DNA of 64,000 nt from Candidatus Promineifilum breve. Lineage in GTDB: Bacteria > Chloroflexota > Anaerolineae > Promineifilales > Promineifilaceae. The notes under the pieces were generated by a model. That model was given only the letters and a program-made list of their open reading frames with translations, was not told the origin of the DNA and searched no databases. The stretch is taken from NCBI RefSeq assembly GCF_900066015.1, contig NZ_LN890655.1:3822726-3886725 (forward strand), given 5' to 3'. The translations under genes and the position numbers were made by a program. Below are positions 9,497 through 19,890 of this stretch, in pieces. Each line of letters opens with the position of its first letter. Within the stretch, counting starts at the first letter, position 1.

Positions 9497-9512
9497 CCAT
9501 TCCGCACCGCCG

Positions 9513-9893
9513 TCACAACACGATCTCCCGCATACACACCGGACACGGATACATCGCCCGCGCCACCAGCCACCACGCCCCCGCGTGCCATGCGGCGCGA
9601 GATGAACCCGTCGGCGTCGGTATATCCCTCAGCGGCCCGGCCGTCACCACGTCCAGGCCGAGACATTCCGCGCCCAGGCAATTCGCGCAGACCGTCGGCG
9701 CCACGTCCGTTTCATCCCCGCAGGCCGTCAGCGTGAAGAAAAACACCCGATTACCGCCGCGCTTTCCTTGCTCGGCCGCATAGAACATCTCCTGCGTCAC
9801 CCGTCGCCCGGCCAACTGAAAGCGCGGCCGCTGCGGCCTGTCGGGTTCCGGGCGATACGCCGCCCGCGTCATTGTTGGTTGCTGATACATCAT
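9513..9893 (-). CDS. Cys-rich hypothetical phage protein (zinc-ribbon-like)
   Basis: 126 residues with several cysteines in pairs: TACGDET, VCANCLGAECLG and a C-terminal YPCPVCMREIVL. The pattern suggests a zinc-binding fold, but the spacing does not match a family I know. It follows the helicase-loader gene with a 4-base overlap (ATGA-like). Confidence 0.55.
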   Translation of the reverse strand: MMYQQPTMTRAAYRPEPDRPQRPRFQLAGRRVTQEMFYAAEQGKRGGNRVFFFTLTACGDETDVAPTVCANCLGAECLGLDVVTAGPLRDIPTPTGSSRAAWHAGAWWLVARAMYPCPVCMREIVL

Positions 9894-10480
9894 GCCTCCT
9901 CAAGTTGCGGCACCCGCCGCGCCGATAACCGCCGCGCCGCGTCCGCAATCAGCACCGCCGGATCGCGCCTCAAACCCTCGGCCAGTCGCTCACCATACTG
10001 CGCCGATGCCGGAAGCTGCATCATGTCCCGCGTCCGGCGCTTCAGCCGCTCGTCATACGCCGCGATAAAACGCGCCCGATCAGCCGCCGGATTCTCCGAC
10101 ATGCACAGATACAGCCACCCGCCCACATCCTGGACAGCCTGCGCAATGAGCGCGTTCTCCCACGCCGGATTACCCCAACTGCCCGTATAGCGCAAAGCCC
10201 GCGTAACCTCCCCCCACGCCTCGCTTCCCGGCGGCAACCCCTGCGCCTGGGTCACGATCTCGGCCGCATACTGGCGCAATTCGCCCGGCGTCGGGATTCG
10301 CGGATAAACGTTGTTCTCGATGAATCGCAGCGTCGCCGCTTTCAGCAACGCGCCGTCAATGTCGGCCAGCGTCGCGACGTAGGCGCGAGATTGCTCAGTC
10401 CCGAACGTGTGCCCATACGTGGCGCTGAGCAGATGCAAAATGGTGATGACATGCTGAGTCAAATTGTCCACGGTGACCAT
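9890..10480 (-). CDS. Probable replicative helicase loader/inhibitor (G39P-like)
   Basis: 196 residues. The N-terminus (ILHLLSATYGHTFGTEQSRAYVATLADID, then YPRIPTPGELRQYAAEI) resembles the G39P-type loaders of phages that deliver host DnaB to the origin. It overlaps the initiator gene by 22 bases, the same order as lambda O and P. No AAA+ motif is present, so it would be the small, non-ATPase type. Confidence 0.6.
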   Translation of the reverse strand: MVTVDNLTQHVITILHLLSATYGHTFGTEQSRAYVATLADIDGALLKAATLRFIENNVYPRIPTPGELRQYAAEIVTQAQGLPPGSEAWGEVTRALRYTGSWGNPAWENALIAQAVQDVGGWLYLCMSENPAADRARFIAAYDERLKRRTRDMMQLPASAQYGERLAEGLRRDPAVLIADAARRLSARRVPQLEEA

Positions 10481-11367
10481 TCTCCTGATTCGATTTCCTG
10501 CGCAACCTGCGCCAGCACGGCCCGGTTATGCGCCTCTCGCGCCATCGGGTCATTCTTGAAATTGGCGTGACCGTTGCCGTTGCCGTTCATCCGCTGCGTT
10601 AGCGGCAATAGCTCGCGGTCGATCATCGTCTGCACGTGGCCGGGCAACTTCGCCGGGTCGAGGATCGTCAAGCCCTGGGCCAGCATGTCATTGCGCACGG
10701 CCTGGACTTTCGCCTTCGCCACATCAACGTTTCGGCCGCAAGTGAGCCAGATGTCATTAAATGGCTTGAGCCAGTTGTCGCGGAAGGCATCGGATTTCCG
10801 CGACGGCGGTTTGCGTTTGGTCAGTTCCTCCCAGAACTCAATGAGTTCTGCGATTGCCTCCCTTGCTCGTTGCAGCGCTTCCCCGTCCGAGTCATCGTCA
10901 TCAGGCGCGGCGCTCCCCTCGCGCGCATATATATACTTAATGGGGTCTACTTCTTTTGGTCCTATTAATGGAAGAGACCCCACCTGGTGAAATTCTGGTT
11001 TCATGTGGTGAAATTCTGGTTTCATGTGGTGAAATTCTGGTTTCATGTGGTGAAGATTTTCTTCATGTGGTGAAATTACACTTTCATCAGGTGAAATTTC
11101 AGGCTCCGAAATCGAGGCTGTTTCAACGTCGGGAAGGGCCACTTCGTAGACCTTGCGACCATCAATTTTGCTCTTGATAAGCCACCCTATTTGCTCCAGT
11201 CGGTTACGCGCTTGCGACGCCTTGCCGATGCTCATGCCGGTCGACTCGGCGATGGATTCGAGCGTTTCCCAGCACTGCCCGCGTCGCCAGACACGTATCA
11301 AAAGCCGCGTCTCATAAGGGTCAAGGTCGCTGTCATCCAGTGCCCGGAAAAAGTCAATGGCCTTCAT
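10459..11367 (-). CDS. Phage replication initiator with winged-helix domain, iterons inside the gene
   Basis: About 302 residues from ATG at 11367 (MKAIDFFRALDDSDLDPYETRL). Residues about 15-75 form a winged-helix domain (ESIAESTGMSIGKASQARNRL) like phage initiators (DnaD or lambda O type). Residues near 120-145 carry three exact copies of HHMKPEF, encoded by the 21-base iterons. The C-terminal part (AIAELIEFWEELTKRKPPSR...DNWLKPFNDIWLTCGR) would contact the replisome. It is followed by the helicase loader. I rejected the longer frame to 11472 because it runs back through the upstream gene. Confidence 0.75.
   Translation of the reverse strand: MKAIDFFRALDDSDLDPYETRLLIRVWRRGQCWETLESIAESTGMSIGKASQARNRLEQIGWLIKSKIDGRKVYEVALPDVETASISEPEISPDESVISPHEENLHHMKPEFHHMKPEFHHMKPEFHQVGSLPLIGPKEVDPIKYIYAREGSAAPDDDDSDGEALQRAREAIAELIEFWEELTKRKPPSRKSDAFRDNWLKPFNDIWLTCGRNVDVAKAKVQAVRNDMLAQGLTILDPAKLPGHVQTMIDRELLPLTQRMNGNGNGHANFKNDPMAREAHNRAVLAQVAQEIESGEWSPWTI
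10921..11105. other. Candidate phage replication origin (iterons plus AT-rich stretch)
   Basis: Next to the iterons, 10926-10975 is AT-rich (CATATATATACTTAATGGG, TTCTTTTGGTCCTATTAATGG) in an otherwise GC-rich region. Iterons followed by an unwinding element within the initiator gene is the arrangement of the lambda origin in gene O. Inference from structure only. Confidence 0.6.
10985..11105. repeat. 21-base iterons (three exact, about three degenerate)
   Basis: TGGTGAAATTCTGGTTTCATG is repeated head to tail at 10985-11005, 11006-11026 and 11027-11047, followed by diverged copies at 11048-11067, 11068-11088 and about 11089-11105. Each unit is a partial palindrome (TGAAA...TTTCA), as expected for a dimeric initiator. 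The array lies inside the initiator coding region. Confidence 0.9.
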
Positions 11368-11374
11368 GATTGCG

Positions 11375-11599
11375 TCACTCCGGCACCGTCTCGGCCCCGG
11401 CCGCTTCCAGATGCCGGGCGGCAACCTGTAATCTGACCGTCGCCTCCAGCAGATCGCGCTCCAGCCCGACACGGGTATATTCCCCGCGCTGGATACGCTT
11501 CAACAGCCGTTCCAACTGCATCGCGGCCGTCGTTATTTCCTCGGCCGCGCGATCTCTGTGAACTCGCATCGCATTGGGCCACGGTCGTTTTTCTGTCAT
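11375..11599 (-). CDS. Small helical phage protein (74 aa)
   Basis: Highly charged, predicted all-helical (EITTAAMQLERLLKRIQRG, LLEATVRLQVAARHLEAAG), likely a coiled coil. It sits 7 bases upstream of the initiator gene and downstream of the membrane-protein gene. No family recognised; a regulator or replication accessory is possible. Confidence 0.5.
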   Translation of the reverse strand: MTEKRPWPNAMRVHRDRAAEEITTAAMQLERLLKRIQRGEYTRVGLERDLLEATVRLQVAARHLEAAGAETVPE

Positions 11600-11965
11600 T
11601 CATAACCCCTCACTCTCTGCGCGCCGAGCGCGGACATAACGGTAAATGTCGCCTACAGCCGGGAACAATCCCGACGCCGCAAACAGCACAAACAGCACCG
11701 CCGCGATCTGCCAACCGACAACAAAAGAGGCCGCGGCCAGCGTCACTCCCACGCCGACCACGACCTCCAGCCACACATAGCCGTCATTCAGACCGCGCCG
11801 GTGCAACTCGTGAATGATGTAATTGAACCCGATACCGAACACGAACAGGCCCAGCGCCACGACGGTCAGCGCGTCCCAATTCACGCCCGGATCGGCTCCC
11901 AATTGGCTCCCGTTTTCGAGAAAGTCGAAAACGAATGTATTCTGTAGATAGTTCATCCATTCCAC
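11600..11965 (-). CDS. Phage membrane protein, first gene of the leftward operon
   Basis: 121 residues with about three membrane segments: LTVVALGLFVFGIGFNYII, WLEVVVGVGVTLAAASFVVG and IAAVLFVLFAASGLFPAV, and a basic C-terminus (RYVRARRAE). Size and layout are holin-like, but a holin would be odd at the promoter-proximal end, so superinfection exclusion or another membrane role is equally possible. The start is at 11965 or the in-frame ATG at 11956. Confidence 0.6.
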   Translation of the reverse strand: MEWMNYLQNTFVFDFLENGSQLGADPGVNWDALTVVALGLFVFGIGFNYIIHELHRRGLNDGYVWLEVVVGVGVTLAAASFVVGWQIAAVLFVLFAASGLFPAVGDIYRYVRARRAESEGL

Positions 11966-11997
11966 TCTGGCCGGAAAAAAGGCCGGCCACCATCCAG

Positions 11998-12028
11998 ACG
12001 GTTGGGACGCTGCGAACGTCCCAACCGT
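11998..12028. promoter_or_regulatory. 12-base inverted repeat between divergent phage promoters
   Basis: ACGGTTGGGACG and its exact complement flank a 7-base loop (12010-12016). It lies in the 88-base gap between the leftward operon and the integrase. It could be an operator controlling both directions or an integrase/excisionase arm site; as RNA it could also form a hairpin, but no T-run worth the name follows. Confidence 0.6.
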
Positions 12029-12053
12029 TTACCCATGCCGCAAGGAGGCCCAC

Positions 12054-13052
12054 ATGACCCCTCGCATTCTTCCTGATAGACTTTCTGTGGCCGTGACCGC
12101 GTTCCTGGCCGAGAAACAGACCGAGCTATCCCCCTACTCCGTCCAACACCTGCGGAGCAGCCTCGTCCCCCTGGTCGATGCGCTGGACGATCCTCCCCTC
12201 GCCGCCATCACCTACGACGACCTGCGCGCCTACGCCGACGGCCTGCGCCGTAAGTACAAGCCGGGCACAATCAAGCCGACAGTCGGTGACATTCGCCAGT
12301 TCTTTGGTTGGTGCAAAGAGCGGAAGAAACGGAAAGGCAACCCGGCCAAACGGCTTAAACCGCCGTCGCGCCGCGTCGTAGTCGAATCGGCCGAACCGAA
12401 GGTCCCGCCGGAAGAAGGAATCCGGCGGCTATTTGACCATCTGGCCGCTCACCTGACCCGCGTCGTCTATCGCGATCTATTCGGGAATCTGTGCGCCGCG
12501 CCTTCCGACGAATGGCGCTACGACGAACGGCAAACCGTGCGCGACTTACTTGTCTTGTCTTTTCTCTACGAAACAGGGGCTAGGGCCGGGGAACTGTGGC
12601 GGCTGGGCAGCCGGGCAATGGACTTGGCAGTAGCCACGCCGGGGCCGGTCTACTGCGCTTCGTCCACCGGCAAAACTGGGGACACGCGGCTACGGTTTAC
12701 CCGCGCCACGGCCGAATTGTGGTCAATTTGGCAGTTGGTCCGACCGACCGGATGCGAAGAGTTTGCCGTTGTCGGCTGGAAGATCGGCCGCCCGCCCACA
12801 CCCATGAGCACCCAGACAATCTCAAAAACGATTGCCCGGCGATGTAAACGCGCCGCCGTCGCCCCCTTCCGCGCCCACGCGCTCAGGCATGCAAAAATCC
12901 GTAGGGGTGTGGACGCGGTAGGATTGGAGGCGACAAGCCGACTCATCGGCCACGGCAGCGCCGTCATCACGGCTGCCTATGCCGTGGCCGGCGAGCGCGA
13001 GTTAAACGACGCGGCCCTGGCGACGGGACTACACGGCCGACTTTGGACGTAG
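12054..13052 (+). CDS. int: Tyrosine-type site-specific integrase
   Basis: 332 residues. An N-terminal SAM-like core-binding domain (about 10-100) precedes the catalytic domain with the full set: Arg177 (TGARAGEL), Lys207 (STGKTGD), His275-x-x-Arg278 (HALRH), His300 (LIGHGS) and the nucleophile Tyr309 (ITAAYA). It would integrate and excise the prophage at the tRNA-like site that starts 8 bases after its stop. A strong AAGGAGG precedes the ATG. It is the only rightward gene in the element. Confidence 0.95.
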   Translation: MTPRILPDRLSVAVTAFLAEKQTELSPYSVQHLRSSLVPLVDALDDPPLAAITYDDLRAYADGLRRKYKPGTIKPTVGDIRQFFGWCKERKKRKGNPAKRLKPPSRRVVVESAEPKVPPEEGIRRLFDHLAAHLTRVVYRDLFGNLCAAPSDEWRYDERQTVRDLLVLSFLYETGARAGELWRLGSRAMDLAVATPGPVYCASSTGKTGDTRLRFTRATAELWSIWQLVRPTGCEEFAVVGWKIGRPPTPMSTQTISKTIARRCKRAAVAPFRAHALRHAKIRRGVDAVGLEATSRLIGHGSAVITAAYAVAGERELNDAALATGLHGRLWT

Positions 13053-14793: not shown

Positions 14794-16584
14794 TTAGCCT
14801 CGCTCAATGACCTGTAAGGTGACGGTGTCGCCCACGCGCCGCAGGGCCACCCGGTCGCCGTGGCGGATGAAGCGGGTGGGGTCGGTATCGAAGCTGCAGG
14901 CATAGGGGATGCCTTCCAGCGAGCAGGCGGGCGCGGTTTGTTGATCGATCTCGCTATTCACCACGGCGATGGGGCCGACGCCGCGATAATACAACTCCAG
15001 CACCACGTAGGGGGCCACGCTGGAGCCGGTGCCGCGGGGGAAGATGGCGATCTTGCCGGCCAGACTTTGGCCGTCGGCCGGGTGGCCCTCTTCCTCAATG
15101 ACGCCGGTCTGCCGGTTGACATAACCCAGGAAAGTGATCGGCGTGTCGGTGACGAACGCCTCGCCGATGATCTCGTAGTCAGCCTGCGACGGCAGGCCGC
15201 GGCCCAGGGCGGTTGTGACGGCCGCCGGTTCATCGGCCGGTTTGGTTGGCGCGGGTTGGGCCGGCTTGGGGGCCGGGGAGGCCGGGTGGATGTTCGGAGC
15301 AACCGGTGGGTGCGCTTGCTCGTTCAAAACCTGCTCGCCCGCCGCCAGGGCAATACAATCGGCCAGACGCATGACCGAGGTGGGAATGCCGTTCAGGCCG
15401 GACTTGATGTAATGTTCAGCCTTCATCGAGTTGGTCAGGATGTGGCTGACCCAGCTTTGGTCATAGGGCACCACTTCGGGGCAGGTGTTCTCCAGCAGCA
15501 GCGCTCCACTGCCGGTGATGGCCGCGGCCAGGCCGGTCTTCTCGGCGATGGCCTTCGACGTGGCCGAGGTGAACACCCACAGCGGCGGCGGTTGGCCGGG
15601 GGCGGCCGGGTCGGCCCCCACCTGGCGGCCGCGCAACAGGGCGGCGATGGCCCGCAATTCGCCGATGGAGGCCTGCGGGCAGCCGAGGACGATCAGGGAG
15701 ATGGGCGCGGCCGGGTGCAGCTCGGCGTAGCGCCCGGCCAGTTCGTCCGGCCCGAACGTCAACTGATCCTGAACGTCGGTTGGGAGCGCCTCAGCGGTGT
15801 CCACCAGATAGAGCAGGGGGCAGCCATAGTTGGCCGCCGCCGCGCTCAGGGCCTTGCGCTGCTCGTGGGTCAAGTCGGCCGGCAAGCCAGTGATGGCCGG
15901 GATGGGGCCATAGGGCATGCGCCAGCCGGGGCGGCGCTGCTTGCCGATCCAGTCGCCCAGGAGGGAAAAGTCGGTGGGGTCGGCGAGCGGCGCGGTGACG
16001 GTGACGGCCAGATTCGGCCGGCGCGCCGCCTCATCGAGCAGGCCGTAGTCGGGCGCGTAGCCGGTCAGGGCGCAGGCCAGCGCCGACAGCCCCGATTCGC
16101 GGTTGGTGCGCAAATCGCAATAGGAGTTGGCGAAACAGATGGCGTTCGATTCGGCCCAGGCGGCGGCCACACCGGGCTGGAGCGCGGGCAAGACATCATC
16201 CCACTCGTAGGGCACGCAGGATTGGATGGCCCGCACGCCCAGGCGGACGTAGGCGGCGACGATCTGGCGATGGTGATCCAGAAAATCGGGCACGGCGATG
16301 CGCATGGCCGGAAATTGGGCCTCGTCGCAGCCGGCGGCGTTGAGGGTGGTGGGCACGGCCACGCCCGCGCCGGGGTCTTCGGCCAGCCGGGCCAGGAACA
16401 GCCGCAAACCCAGCCCGCCGGTCAGCGGCGACACGCCCGACAGGTGGGCGCTGCCGATGGGCGTCAGGCGCTCGGCCCCGGCCATGGCCGCCAGGTCGAG
16501 CAGCAGGCGCATACCCATCTGCCGGGCGCGGCCTTGCTCGCCGGCCAGCATCGCGCGTTGGTCTTCGTTTAGCGTCATTGTCAT
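14794..16584 (-). CDS. Fused aconitase X (candidate phosphomevalonate dehydratase or related dehydratase)
   Basis: 596 residues. Residues 1-420 are the AcnX catalytic domain with AWAESNAICFANSYCDLRTN, VLGCPQASIGEL and LLLENTCPEVVPYD; these Cys-containing motifs are where the family holds its iron-sulfur cluster. A Pro/Ala linker (about 421-458) leads to the swivel domain 459-596 (TGVIEEEGHPADGQSLAGKI and FPRGTGSSVAPYV, with the expected active-site Ser). In archaea the two parts are separate subunits of mevalonate-5-phosphate dehydratase; bacterial fused AcnX includes hydroxyproline dehydratases. The adjacent UbiD-family gene (5-base gap) favours the mevalonate assignment, but it is not proven. 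Confidence 0.8.
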   Translation of the reverse strand: MTMTLNEDQRAMLAGEQGRARQMGMRLLLDLAAMAGAERLTPIGSAHLSGVSPLTGGLGLRLFLARLAEDPGAGVAVPTTLNAAGCDEAQFPAMRIAVPDFLDHHRQIVAAYVRLGVRAIQSCVPYEWDDVLPALQPGVAAAWAESNAICFANSYCDLRTNRESGLSALACALTGYAPDYGLLDEAARRPNLAVTVTAPLADPTDFSLLGDWIGKQRRPGWRMPYGPIPAITGLPADLTHEQRKALSAAAANYGCPLLYLVDTAEALPTDVQDQLTFGPDELAGRYAELHPAAPISLIVLGCPQASIGELRAIAALLRGRQVGADPAAPGQPPPLWVFTSATSKAIAEKTGLAAAITGSGALLLENTCPEVVPYDQSWVSHILTNSMKAEHYIKSGLNGIPTSVMRLADCIALAAGEQVLNEQAHPPVAPNIHPASPAPKPAQPAPTKPADEPAAVTTALGRGLPSQADYEIIGEAFVTDTPITFLGYVNRQTGVIEEEGHPADGQSLAGKIAIFPRGTGSSVAPYVVLELYYRGVGPIAVVNSEIDQQTAPACSLEGIPYACSFDTDPTRFIRHGDRVALRRVGDTVTLQVIERG

Positions 16585-16589
16585 GGTGA

Positions 16590-17900
16590 TTAGAGATAGC
16601 GGCTCAGGTCAACCCGGCCATATTCGCCGCGCTCATATTTGGCGCGGTCGGCATCCCAGGGGATGGTGCAATCCAGCCCCATCTTGGCCGTCAGGCTCTT
16701 GCGGCCGGGGACGTGGCTGCCCGACGGGTCGAGCGAACTGCCGGGTTGATTCGCATAGACATATAGGTCACGGTCGGCCTGGAAGCGGGTTGCCAGCGCC
16801 CACTCCACCTGGGCCGGGTCGTAGATGTCCACGTCGCTATCGACGACCCAGACGTGTTTGAGCGAGCCATGGCCGCGAAAGGCGGCTTCGATGGCGCGGC
16901 GGCCGTCGTCCGGCCCCTGCTTATCGATTTGTACCACGGCGTGGAGCCAGGACGTGCCGCCGGGGGTGATGTTGACCCCGGTGCAGCGCGTGACCTCGTT
17001 GACGGCGTTGAAGATGGTCGGCTCCTTGGGCATGCCCATCAGCAGCTTGTGCTCCAGACCGCCGGGCAGCAGGACGTGGAAGATGGGGTCGCGGCGGTGG
17101 GTCATCAGGTCGATCTCGATGATCGGCTGCATCCGGGTGATGTCCATCGTCTCGGTCAGGTCCATGAACGGCCCTTCGCTGTAGAATTGTTGGGTGATGC
17201 GCCCCTCTAACACGATCTCGGCTTCGGCCGGGACGTAGAGGTCATTGGTGAGGCACTTCACCAGCGGGGTGGGGGACAACGCTTGGGCCACGGCCAGTTC
17301 ATCGACGCCGGGCGACGGCGACATGGAGGCCGCCAGATGGACGCCCAGCGACACGCCGATGCAGATCGCCACCGGCAGATCGCCGGGCGTCTTCTGCATG
17401 GCGTTGTACGTGCCGCGATTCTCCACGATGCGGGCGGCGAAGCGCTTGCCGTCCAGCCGCAACAGGCGGTGGTAGCACATATTGCGCCCCAACTCAGGAT
17501 CGTTGATGATGACCACATTGCTGGCGATGTAGTGCCCGCCGTCCTGGGGCAGGTGGAGCAGGATGGGCAGTTGGTTGAGATCGACAGCCTCGACGACGAC
17601 TTCCTGGCAGGGCGCGCTGTCCACGACCGGCGGTGTCACCGGGTTGGCGACGGCCCGCGACAGGTGATGGAGCAGGTCGGGCACGGGGACGCCCAGATCC
17701 ATGCTGAAATTGCGGCGGTCGGCGCAGACCCCGGCGCAGAGACGCCAGCCGGGGTAATCCTGGATATGGTTAAACAGCACCGGCCGCCCGTCCAGCGCGT
17801 GGGCGACGTTGGCTGCCTCGTAAGTCGTATGGACGGGGGTGTCGATGACGATCAGATCGCCGCGCTGGGCGGCCATGTCGATGAAGCGGCGAAAACTCAT
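16590..17900 (-). CDS. UbiD-family decarboxylase (candidate anhydromevalonate phosphate decarboxylase)
   Basis: 436 residues from ATG at 17900, chosen for the AGAGGAAAGAG ribosome site. UbiD family stretches: YIASNVVIINDPELGRNMCYHRL, MQKTPGDLPVAICIG, ITQQFYSEGPFMDLTETMD and FRGHGSLKHVWVVDSDVDIYD. Such enzymes need prenylated FMN. Together with aconitase X they make trans-anhydromevalonate phosphate and decarboxylate it to isopentenyl phosphate in the archaeal mevalonate route. A TATAAT-like -10 lies at 17926-17931. It could also be an aromatic-acid decarboxylase, but the AcnX partner makes this less likely. Confidence 0.8.
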   Translation of the reverse strand: MSFRRFIDMAAQRGDLIVIDTPVHTTYEAANVAHALDGRPVLFNHIQDYPGWRLCAGVCADRRNFSMDLGVPVPDLLHHLSRAVANPVTPPVVDSAPCQEVVVEAVDLNQLPILLHLPQDGGHYIASNVVIINDPELGRNMCYHRLLRLDGKRFAARIVENRGTYNAMQKTPGDLPVAICIGVSLGVHLAASMSPSPGVDELAVAQALSPTPLVKCLTNDLYVPAEAEIVLEGRITQQFYSEGPFMDLTETMDITRMQPIIEIDLMTHRRDPIFHVLLPGGLEHKLLMGMPKEPTIFNAVNEVTRCTGVNITPGGTSWLHAVVQIDKQGPDDGRRAIEAAFRGHGSLKHVWVVDSDVDIYDPAQVEWALATRFQADRDLYVYANQPGSSLDPSGSHVPGRKSLTAKMGLDCTIPWDADRAKYERGEYGRVDLSRYL

Positions 17901-17971
17901 GTCTCTCTTTCCTCTCGCACGAACCATTATAGCCCAGTGCGCGGGTGGGGGCGATTGGAACGATTCTTATT

Positions 17972-18691: not shown

Positions 18692-19828
18692 TTATTTGCG
18701 GCGCAAGAAGGCCGGCACGTCGAGATTGCCGGGGGCGAAGCGCGGGATGAGTTCAGCCGGGGCCGGCTCCACAATGCGCTCCGGCGGCCGTGGCATCGGT
18801 TCGGGCGGGCGCGCCTGACGGGCGGCGGTCTCGAACAGGCCGGTGTCGTTGTGTTGCAGCATCTGGCGGCGCACGTTGGTCTGGTCGAAGCGGGTGGCGA
18901 TGACCGTGATGCGGATTTCGTCGCCCATGGTCTCGTCAATCACCGCGCCGAAGATGACGTTGGCGTCGGGGTGGGTCGTCTCGCGGATGACTTCGGCCGC
19001 CTGATTGACCTCATAGAGGCTGAGCGTCGCCCCGCCGGTGATGTTGAACAATACGCCCTGCGCGCCGTCGATGGTCACGTCCAACAGACGCGAACTGATG
19101 GCCTGCTCGGCGGCGATGCGCGCCCGGTCTTCGCCGGTGCCGCGCCCCACGGCCATCAGTGCCGCGCCGCCCTGGCTCATAATCGTCTTCACGTCGGCGA
19201 AGTCGAGGTTGATTAGGCCGGGCACGGTGATAAGTTCGGTGATGCCCTGAATGCCCTGCCGCAGCACGTCGTCGGCCAACTGGAAGGATTCATAGAGCGG
19301 CATGCGCTTGTTGGTGATGTCCAGCAGCCGGTCATTGGGAATGACGATCAGCGTATCGACGTGTTGCTGGAGCTGCTCGATGCCGCGCTCGGCCGATAGC
19401 GCCCGCTTGCTCCCTTCGAAGTGGAAGGGGCGGGTAACGACGCCAATGGTCAGCGCGCCGATCTCGCGGGCGGCGCGGGCCACCACCGGGGCGGCCCCGG
19501 TGCCCGTGCCGCCGCCCATGCCGGCGGTGACGAACACCATATCCGCGCCTTGGAGGACGGCCTGAATCTCGTTGATCGATTCACCGGCCGCTTTTTCGCC
19601 CTGATCGGGGAACCCTCCCGCGCCCAGGCCTCTGGTCAGTTTGTCGCCGATGCGCACGCGAACCGGTGCATCAGAAAGGGAGAGAGCCTGGTTGTCTGTG
19701 TTGACGGCGATAAAATCGACGCCCTTGACACCTTCGGCGATCATGCGGTTGACCGCATTACTGCCTGCTCCTCCGACTCCGATAACACGGATGCTGGCGG
19801 CACAATCCGTATTCGTTCTTGATTGCAT
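18692..19828 (-). CDS. ftsZ: Cell division protein FtsZ
   Basis: 378 residues from ATG 19828. The tubulin-like GTPase that forms the division ring. It contains [16 protein letters not shown], the GTP-binding signature [31 protein letters not shown], the synergy loop [11 protein letters not shown] and the C-terminal end DVPAFLRRK, which in the family binds FtsA, SepF or ZipA. The linker (about 325-365) is Pro-rich. It is preceded on the same strand by a small HTH gene. No ftsA or ftsQ is next to it. Confidence 0.97.
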
Positions 19829-19890
19829 CCTCTTTTCCCTTCTTCCCTGACGAGCAAAGAGCAATGGATACCTACAAATGCACAGGTCAG

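What the first reader, a model, noticed from the sequence alone, without database searches (positions are those of the whole stretch)
14794..17900. Aconitase X and UbiD-family genes side by side: archaeal-type mevalonate route in a bacterium?
Seen: a fused AcnX (catalytic domain, Pro/Ala linker, swivel domain) lies 5 bases downstream of a UbiD-family gene, with shared direction. Known: in most archaea mevalonate-5-phosphate dehydratase (AcnX, two subunits) and anhydromevalonate phosphate decarboxylase (UbiD family) act in sequence to make isopentenyl phosphate. Inference: this pair could do the same, in a fused-subunit form, in a bacterium. A bacterial copy with a linker-joined subunit pair would be unusual.
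Basis: partly seen in the sequence, partly recalled or inferred. Interest (0 to 1): 0.75.

Follow-up and report, generated by a model that had tools for sequence, protein, structure and literature searches.

The report
Archaeal-type mevalonate enzymes in Promineifilum breve
Two neighbouring genes in a filamentous Chloroflexota bacterium almost certainly encode the two enzymes of the archaeal route to isoprenoids; this was already published for this very organism in 2024, but the same route also appears in about half of the related species sampled here.

Summary
An AcnX protein (catalytic domain, Pro/Ala-rich linker, C-terminal swivel domain; 14794-16584, minus) starts 5 bases after a UbiD-family gene (16590-17927, minus).

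AcnX carries the three cluster cysteines and most substrate residues of archaeal mevalonate-5-phosphate dehydratase. The 99.96% complete genome has archaeal-type HMG-CoA synthase, HMG-CoA reductase, mevalonate kinase, isopentenyl phosphate kinase, UbiX and a single UbiD. No DXP reductoisomerase and no mevalonate-(di)phosphate decarboxylase was found.

It is not new. The genome's rubisco matches PDB 6URA, from Candidatus Promineifilum breve, over all 296 residues compared. Kanno et al. 2024 reported the archaeal mevalonate pathway in that bacterium. I saw that paper only as a citation.

Two things go beyond what I found in print. (1) The fused AcnX forms one clade (support 100) with fused AcnX of marine group II/III archaea (Poseidoniia), far from the split-subunit AcnX of other species of the class; this points to transfer between domains. 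(2) About half of 100 species in the class carry PMDh-like AcnX, often in UbiD-AcnX-IPK clusters, largely where the decarboxylase is missing (Fisher p = 5e-12).

The parts
16590..17927 (-). UbiD-family decarboxylase, proposed trans-anhydromevalonate 5-phosphate decarboxylase (AMPD); start may be the internal Met at 17900
   Evidence: PF20695/PF01977/PF20696 all over cut-off; TIGR00148 319 bits, cut-off 245; only UbiD in the genome
14794..16584 (-). Fused AcnX, proposed mevalonate 5-phosphate dehydratase (PMDh)
   Evidence: PF04412 and PF01989 in one chain; aligns with T. kodakarensis PMDh 7CNR; clade with fused archaeal AcnX
15352..16578 (-). Catalytic domains 1-3 (residues 3-411): cluster cysteines Cys123, Cys302, Cys368; phosphate-site GVS 50-52; Asn82; Glu145-Ser146; Lys388; Tyr392
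   Evidence: positions; roles from PMC8184944 and PMC10040528
15139..15351 (-). Pro/Ala-rich linker joining the two domains (residues 412-482)
   Evidence: region between the two Pfam domains
14905..15138 (-). Swivel domain 4 (residues 483-560) with GTGSSV active-site motif (Thermococcus counterpart Ser62-Thr63-Val64)
   Evidence: PF01989; motif

Best explanation
[quoted passage not shown] The fused AcnX uses a [4Fe-4S] cluster held by three cysteines to remove water from mevalonate 5-phosphate, giving trans-anhydromevalonate 5-phosphate. The UbiD-family enzyme, with prenylated FMN made by UbiX, decarboxylates this to isopentenyl phosphate. Isopentenyl phosphate kinase then makes isopentenyl diphosphate. 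This is the genome's only visible isoprenoid route. Shown here: gene content, domain order, residue conservation, AcnX phylogeny, co-occurrence. Inferred: the reactions themselves. The genome is Candidatus Promineifilum breve, for which the pathway is published (Kanno et al. 2024).
For: AcnX aligns with T. kodakarensis PMDh (147 bits) and keeps cysteines A, 1 and B, the GVS phosphate motif, and the Asn79, Glu129, Ser130, Lys361 and Tyr365 counterparts (residue roles from PMC8184944, and PMC10040528). The paralogue elsewhere in the genome instead has DGCLY and Ser at site 1, like hydroxyproline dehydratase. AcnX groups with archaeal fused AcnX at support 100; the paralogue groups with C3LHyp dehydratase at 99. 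Genome content: MVK TIGR00549 236 bits (cut-off 163) and IPK NF040647 149 bits (cut-off 120); archaeal-type HMGS TIGR00748 543 bits (cut-off 353) in a cluster with HMGR, thiolase and DUF35; UbiX TIGR00421 238 bits (cut-off 109); one UbiD. No DXR and no MVD-like protein, with control genomes matching in both searches. In the class, PMDh-like AcnX and MVD tend to exclude each other: 8 both, 44 AcnX only, 40 MVD only, 8 neither, p = 5e-12. Relatives cluster UbiD, AcnX large, AcnX small and IPK, once with MVK too. Rubisco is 296/296 identical to 6URA, named as P. breve in PMC10135865. Kanno et al. 2024 title seen in PMC13001223.
Against: No activity was measured here. Asn53 and Ser131 of the Thermococcus enzyme are Thr and Asn in this protein. 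Neither protein scores above an NCBIfam cut-off specific for PMDh or AMPD. The UbiD tree has an unresolved backbone and lacks a characterised AMPD reference. In some relatives UbiD lies 2-4 kb from AcnX rather than next to it, and for several split-AcnX contigs no UbiD was seen within the flanks held. I could not read Kanno et al. 2024.
Confidence: 0.95

Rival explanations
1. [quoted passage not shown] their adjacency is incidental.
For: The best PDB score is to the Agrobacterium hydroxyproline dehydratase, only slightly above Tk PMDh, and the only NCBIfam name hit for the catalytic domain is C3LHyp dehydratase, far below cut-off (215 of 700).
Against: Site 1 is Cys and the pocket is GVS, not Ser and DGC[IL]. 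The genome holds a separate AcnX with the hydroxyproline-type residues. The tree separates them. Without this pair the pathway from mevalonate phosphate to isopentenyl phosphate has no visible enzyme.
Confidence: 0.03
2. The pair belongs to one of the uncharacterised bacterial AcnX subclasses (types IIc-IIf) and makes and decarboxylates another unsaturated acid.
For: PMC8184944 reports that bacterial types IIc-IIf lack the landmark residues and are of unknown function; two Tk residues differ here.
Against: The landmark residues are mostly present; the pair tracks absence of MVD across the class and clusters with IPK and MVK in relatives.
Confidence: 0.02

Closest known systems
Archaeal mevalonate pathway of Candidatus Promineifilum breve (Kanno et al. 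2024, Appl Environ Microbiol 90:e0110624)
   Same: Same organism by identical rubisco and, by its title, the same pathway.
   Different: Probably nothing at the gene level; the paper is not held. From memory, its abstract reports activity of both enzymes.
Archaeal PMDh, AcnX type IIb (Aeropyrum pernix, Thermococcus kodakarensis 7CNR/7CNS)
   Same: Cluster cysteines and most substrate residues.
   Different: Those are two subunits; here one chain in the order catalytic-linker-swivel.
Fused AcnX of Poseidoniia (marine group II/III archaea)
   Same: Same domain order, 43-53% identity over nearly full length, one clade at support 100; some loci, including marine group III ones, also have UbiD and MVK next door.
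   Different: Archaeal host; the neighbouring UbiD is only about 41-45% identical in most loci.
[quoted passage not shown]
   Same: Single-chain AcnX.
   Different: Opposite domain order (swivel first), [2Fe-2S] residues, DGC[IL] pocket (PMC8184944).
Phosphomevalonate decarboxylase plus IPK route of other Chloroflexota (Dellas et al. 2013, PMC3857490)
   Same: Also reaches isopentenyl phosphate and uses IPK.
   Different: Uses a GHMP-type decarboxylase, which was not found in this genome.

Membership tests
Archaeal-type PMDh (AcnX type IIb) | Three cysteines for a [4Fe-4S] cluster (sites A, 1, B; no Cys at site C) | tested here: met
   Cys123, Cys302, Cys368; no Cys at site C
Archaeal-type PMDh (AcnX type IIb) | Mevalonate 5-phosphate binding residues | tested here: inconclusive
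   GVS, Asn79, Glu129, Ser130, Lys361, Tyr365 kept; Asn53 is Thr, Ser131 is Asn, swivel Thr63 is Ser
Archaeal-type PMDh (AcnX type IIb) | Groups with archaeal PMDh rather than C3LHyp dehydratase | tested here: met
   Clade with fused Poseidoniia AcnX at support 100, separated from the C3LHyp group at 99; Poseidoniia enzymes are not biochemically characterised to my knowledge, and only one characterised archaeal PMDh (Tk) was in the tree
Archaeal-type PMDh (AcnX type IIb) | Two separate subunits | tested here: not met
   Single chain; also single-chain in Poseidoniia, so I treat this as a fused variant
Archaeal-type PMDh (AcnX type IIb) | Dehydrates mevalonate 5-phosphate | not testable with these tools
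   Needs an enzyme assay
AMPD (UbiD family) | Complete UbiD domain set and a UbiX in the genome | tested here: met
AMPD (UbiD family) | Groups with characterised archaeal AMPD | not tested
   No characterised AMPD sequence was at hand; tree used Poseidoniia neighbours and was unresolved at its base
Archaeal mevalonate pathway | HMGS, HMGR, MVK, PMDh, AMPD, IPK present; no MVD/PMD; no DXP route | tested here: met
   only DXR was tested for the DXP route
Type I C3LHyp dehydratase | Swivel-catalytic order, DGC[IL] pocket, Ser at site 1 | tested here: not met
   the genome's other AcnX has the pocket and Ser

The most novel reading that the evidence does not exclude
The archaeal mevalonate pathway is not an exception in P. 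breve but a common, probably old alternative throughout its class: about half of sampled species use AcnX-UbiD, mostly with split subunits and often in a gene cluster with IPK, in place of the mevalonate-phosphate decarboxylase. Within this background the Promineifilum lineage carries a fused AcnX exchanged with marine group II/III archaea.
Probability: 0.75. Interest if true: 0.55.

Novelty: already known. Interest (0 to 1): 0.4.

Why it matters
The archaeal mevalonate pathway was thought to be nearly exclusive to archaea. A complete bacterial set matters for how isoprenoid synthesis evolved and as a source of enzymes that work in ordinary bacteria. The specific case is published. What could still change the picture is breadth: if half of this class uses the pathway, bacteria are a major holder of it, and the fused enzyme marks a traceable exchange between domains.

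Tried and rejected
Hydroxyproline dehydratase reading: rejected on pocket residues, tree and the presence of a dedicated paralogue. First HMGR hit (C1:88-1632): set aside, since a class-I-like HMGR relative with an N-terminal extension in P. breve is described as the fatty acyl-CoA reductase FcrA (PMC11948995); the class-II HMGR (L017:9282-10661) sits with HMGS and is the likely true one. UbiD tree for direction of transfer: backbone unresolved. Direct reading of Kanno et al. 2024 was not possible. G011/L033, an AcnX in a 640-contig, 8%-contaminated assembly, was not leaned on. No structure was predicted: solved homologues already fixed the residue comparison.

Full report
What is there. Two minus-strand genes lie 5 bases apart: UbiD-family (16590-17927) and AcnX (14794-16584). 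AcnX is one chain with catalytic domain, Pro/Ala-rich linker and swivel domain. That order differs from known single-chain bacterial AcnX, where the swivel comes first (PMC8184944).

Residues. Archaeal phosphomevalonate dehydratase holds a [4Fe-4S] cluster with cysteines at sites A, 1 and B and lacks the site-C cysteine of hydroxyproline dehydratase (PMC10040528). The window protein has Cys123, Cys302 and Cys368 and no site-C cysteine. Of the mevalonate 5-phosphate contacts in the Thermococcus structure (PMC8184944), GVS, Asn79, Glu129, Ser130, Lys361 and Tyr365 are kept; Asn53 is Thr, Ser131 is Asn and swivel Thr63 is Ser. A second AcnX in the genome (C1:1362655-1363878) has the hydroxyproline-type pocket and Ser at site 1.

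Genome. The assembly is 5.03 Mb and 99.96% complete. It holds archaeal-type HMG-CoA synthase, class-II HMG-CoA reductase, thiolase and DUF35 side by side, mevalonate kinase and isopentenyl phosphate kinase, UbiX and only one UbiD. DXP reductoisomerase and MVD-like decarboxylases gave no match, while control genomes did. The other three GHMP kinases match homoserine kinase, galactokinase and a heptose-kinase-like family best. So the pair fills the only gap between mevalonate 5-phosphate and isopentenyl phosphate.

Organism and prior work. The rubisco large chain is identical over the 296 residues compared to 6URA, which PMC10135865 names as Candidatus Promineofilum breve. A 2026 review states that some Chloroflexota encode an archaeal-type pathway and cites Kanno et al. 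[quoted passage not shown] The paper is not held. From memory, its abstract reports in vitro dehydratase activity and carotenoid production through the decarboxylase in E. coli, and says the two enzymes are missing in closely related Chloroflexota; that recollection is not a tool result. The finding is therefore correct but known.

Fusion and transfer. A scan of 84,980 species genomes with a PMDh-like profile kept, as its best 80 loci, 14 Chloroflexota AcnX at 64-74% identity and then archaea, mostly labelled Poseidoniia or marine group II/III, at 43-53%; nearly all are fused. In the AcnX tree (quick search, SH-aLRT only) fused Chloroflexota and fused Poseidoniia form one clade at 100 on a branch of 1.93, apart from the split AcnX of the same bacterial class. 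One fusion event and exchange between the domains is the simplest reading; direction is open. UbiD behaves differently: the window's UbiD is 46-59% identical to full-length UbiD beside or near split AcnX in its own class but about 41-45% to most Poseidoniia neighbours, and its tree is unresolved at the base. A mosaic, with AcnX replaced and UbiD kept, is possible but unproven.

Distribution. In 100 species of the class, 52 have PMDh-like AcnX (profile E at most about 1e-113; the hydroxyproline-like ones fall at about 1e-100 to 1e-109) and 48 have a strong MVD match (75 bits or more). Both thresholds were set by me after seeing the tables. Both 8, AcnX only 44, MVD only 40, neither 8; Fisher p = 5e-12. 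Counting each family once: 8, 19, 17, 0, p = 1.6e-6. Species are not independent, so these values are only a guide. All 30 class loci fetched, the window's own among them, carry the GVS motif and Cys at site 1. Gene clusters support function: UbiD, AcnX large, AcnX small and IPK in L037, L156, L158, L161, L163, L164, L167 and L169; MVK and UbiD near AcnX and IPK in L175; UbiX after AcnX in L031. Several other contigs show no UbiD within the flanks held, and UbiD elsewhere in those genomes was not searched. I found no paper reporting this breadth in the library searched, which does not show that none exists.

Verdict. The class-wide distribution and the shared fusion are the parts worth a follow-up.

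Noticed in passing
G000:C1:1362655-1363878 (L003:12070-14097, minus): A second AcnX with hydroxyproline-dehydratase residues is also fused in the order catalytic-linker-swivel, opposite to the known type I order; same arrangement in the same-genus genome G144 (L057).
   Followed up: partly
G000:C1:88-1632 (L016): Class-I-like HMGR relative with an N-terminal extension, probably the fatty acyl-CoA reductase FcrA described from P. breve.
   Followed up: partly
window 9500-13052: Tyrosine-recombinase-like gene (12054-13052) near small helix-turn-helix and replication-like genes; looks like a mobile element beside the AcnX region. Judged by eye only.
   Followed up: no
window 18692-19864: FtsZ-like gene shortly upstream of the UbiD-AcnX pair, same strand. 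Judged by eye only.
   Followed up: no
L061-L068, L189: In more distant fused-AcnX Chloroflexota the UbiD gene lies 2-4 kb upstream instead of directly adjacent; the genes between were not read.
   Followed up: no
G201, G232, G262 (family f69): All three sampled species of this family hold both PMDh-like AcnX and MVD, so both routes may coexist there.
   Followed up: no
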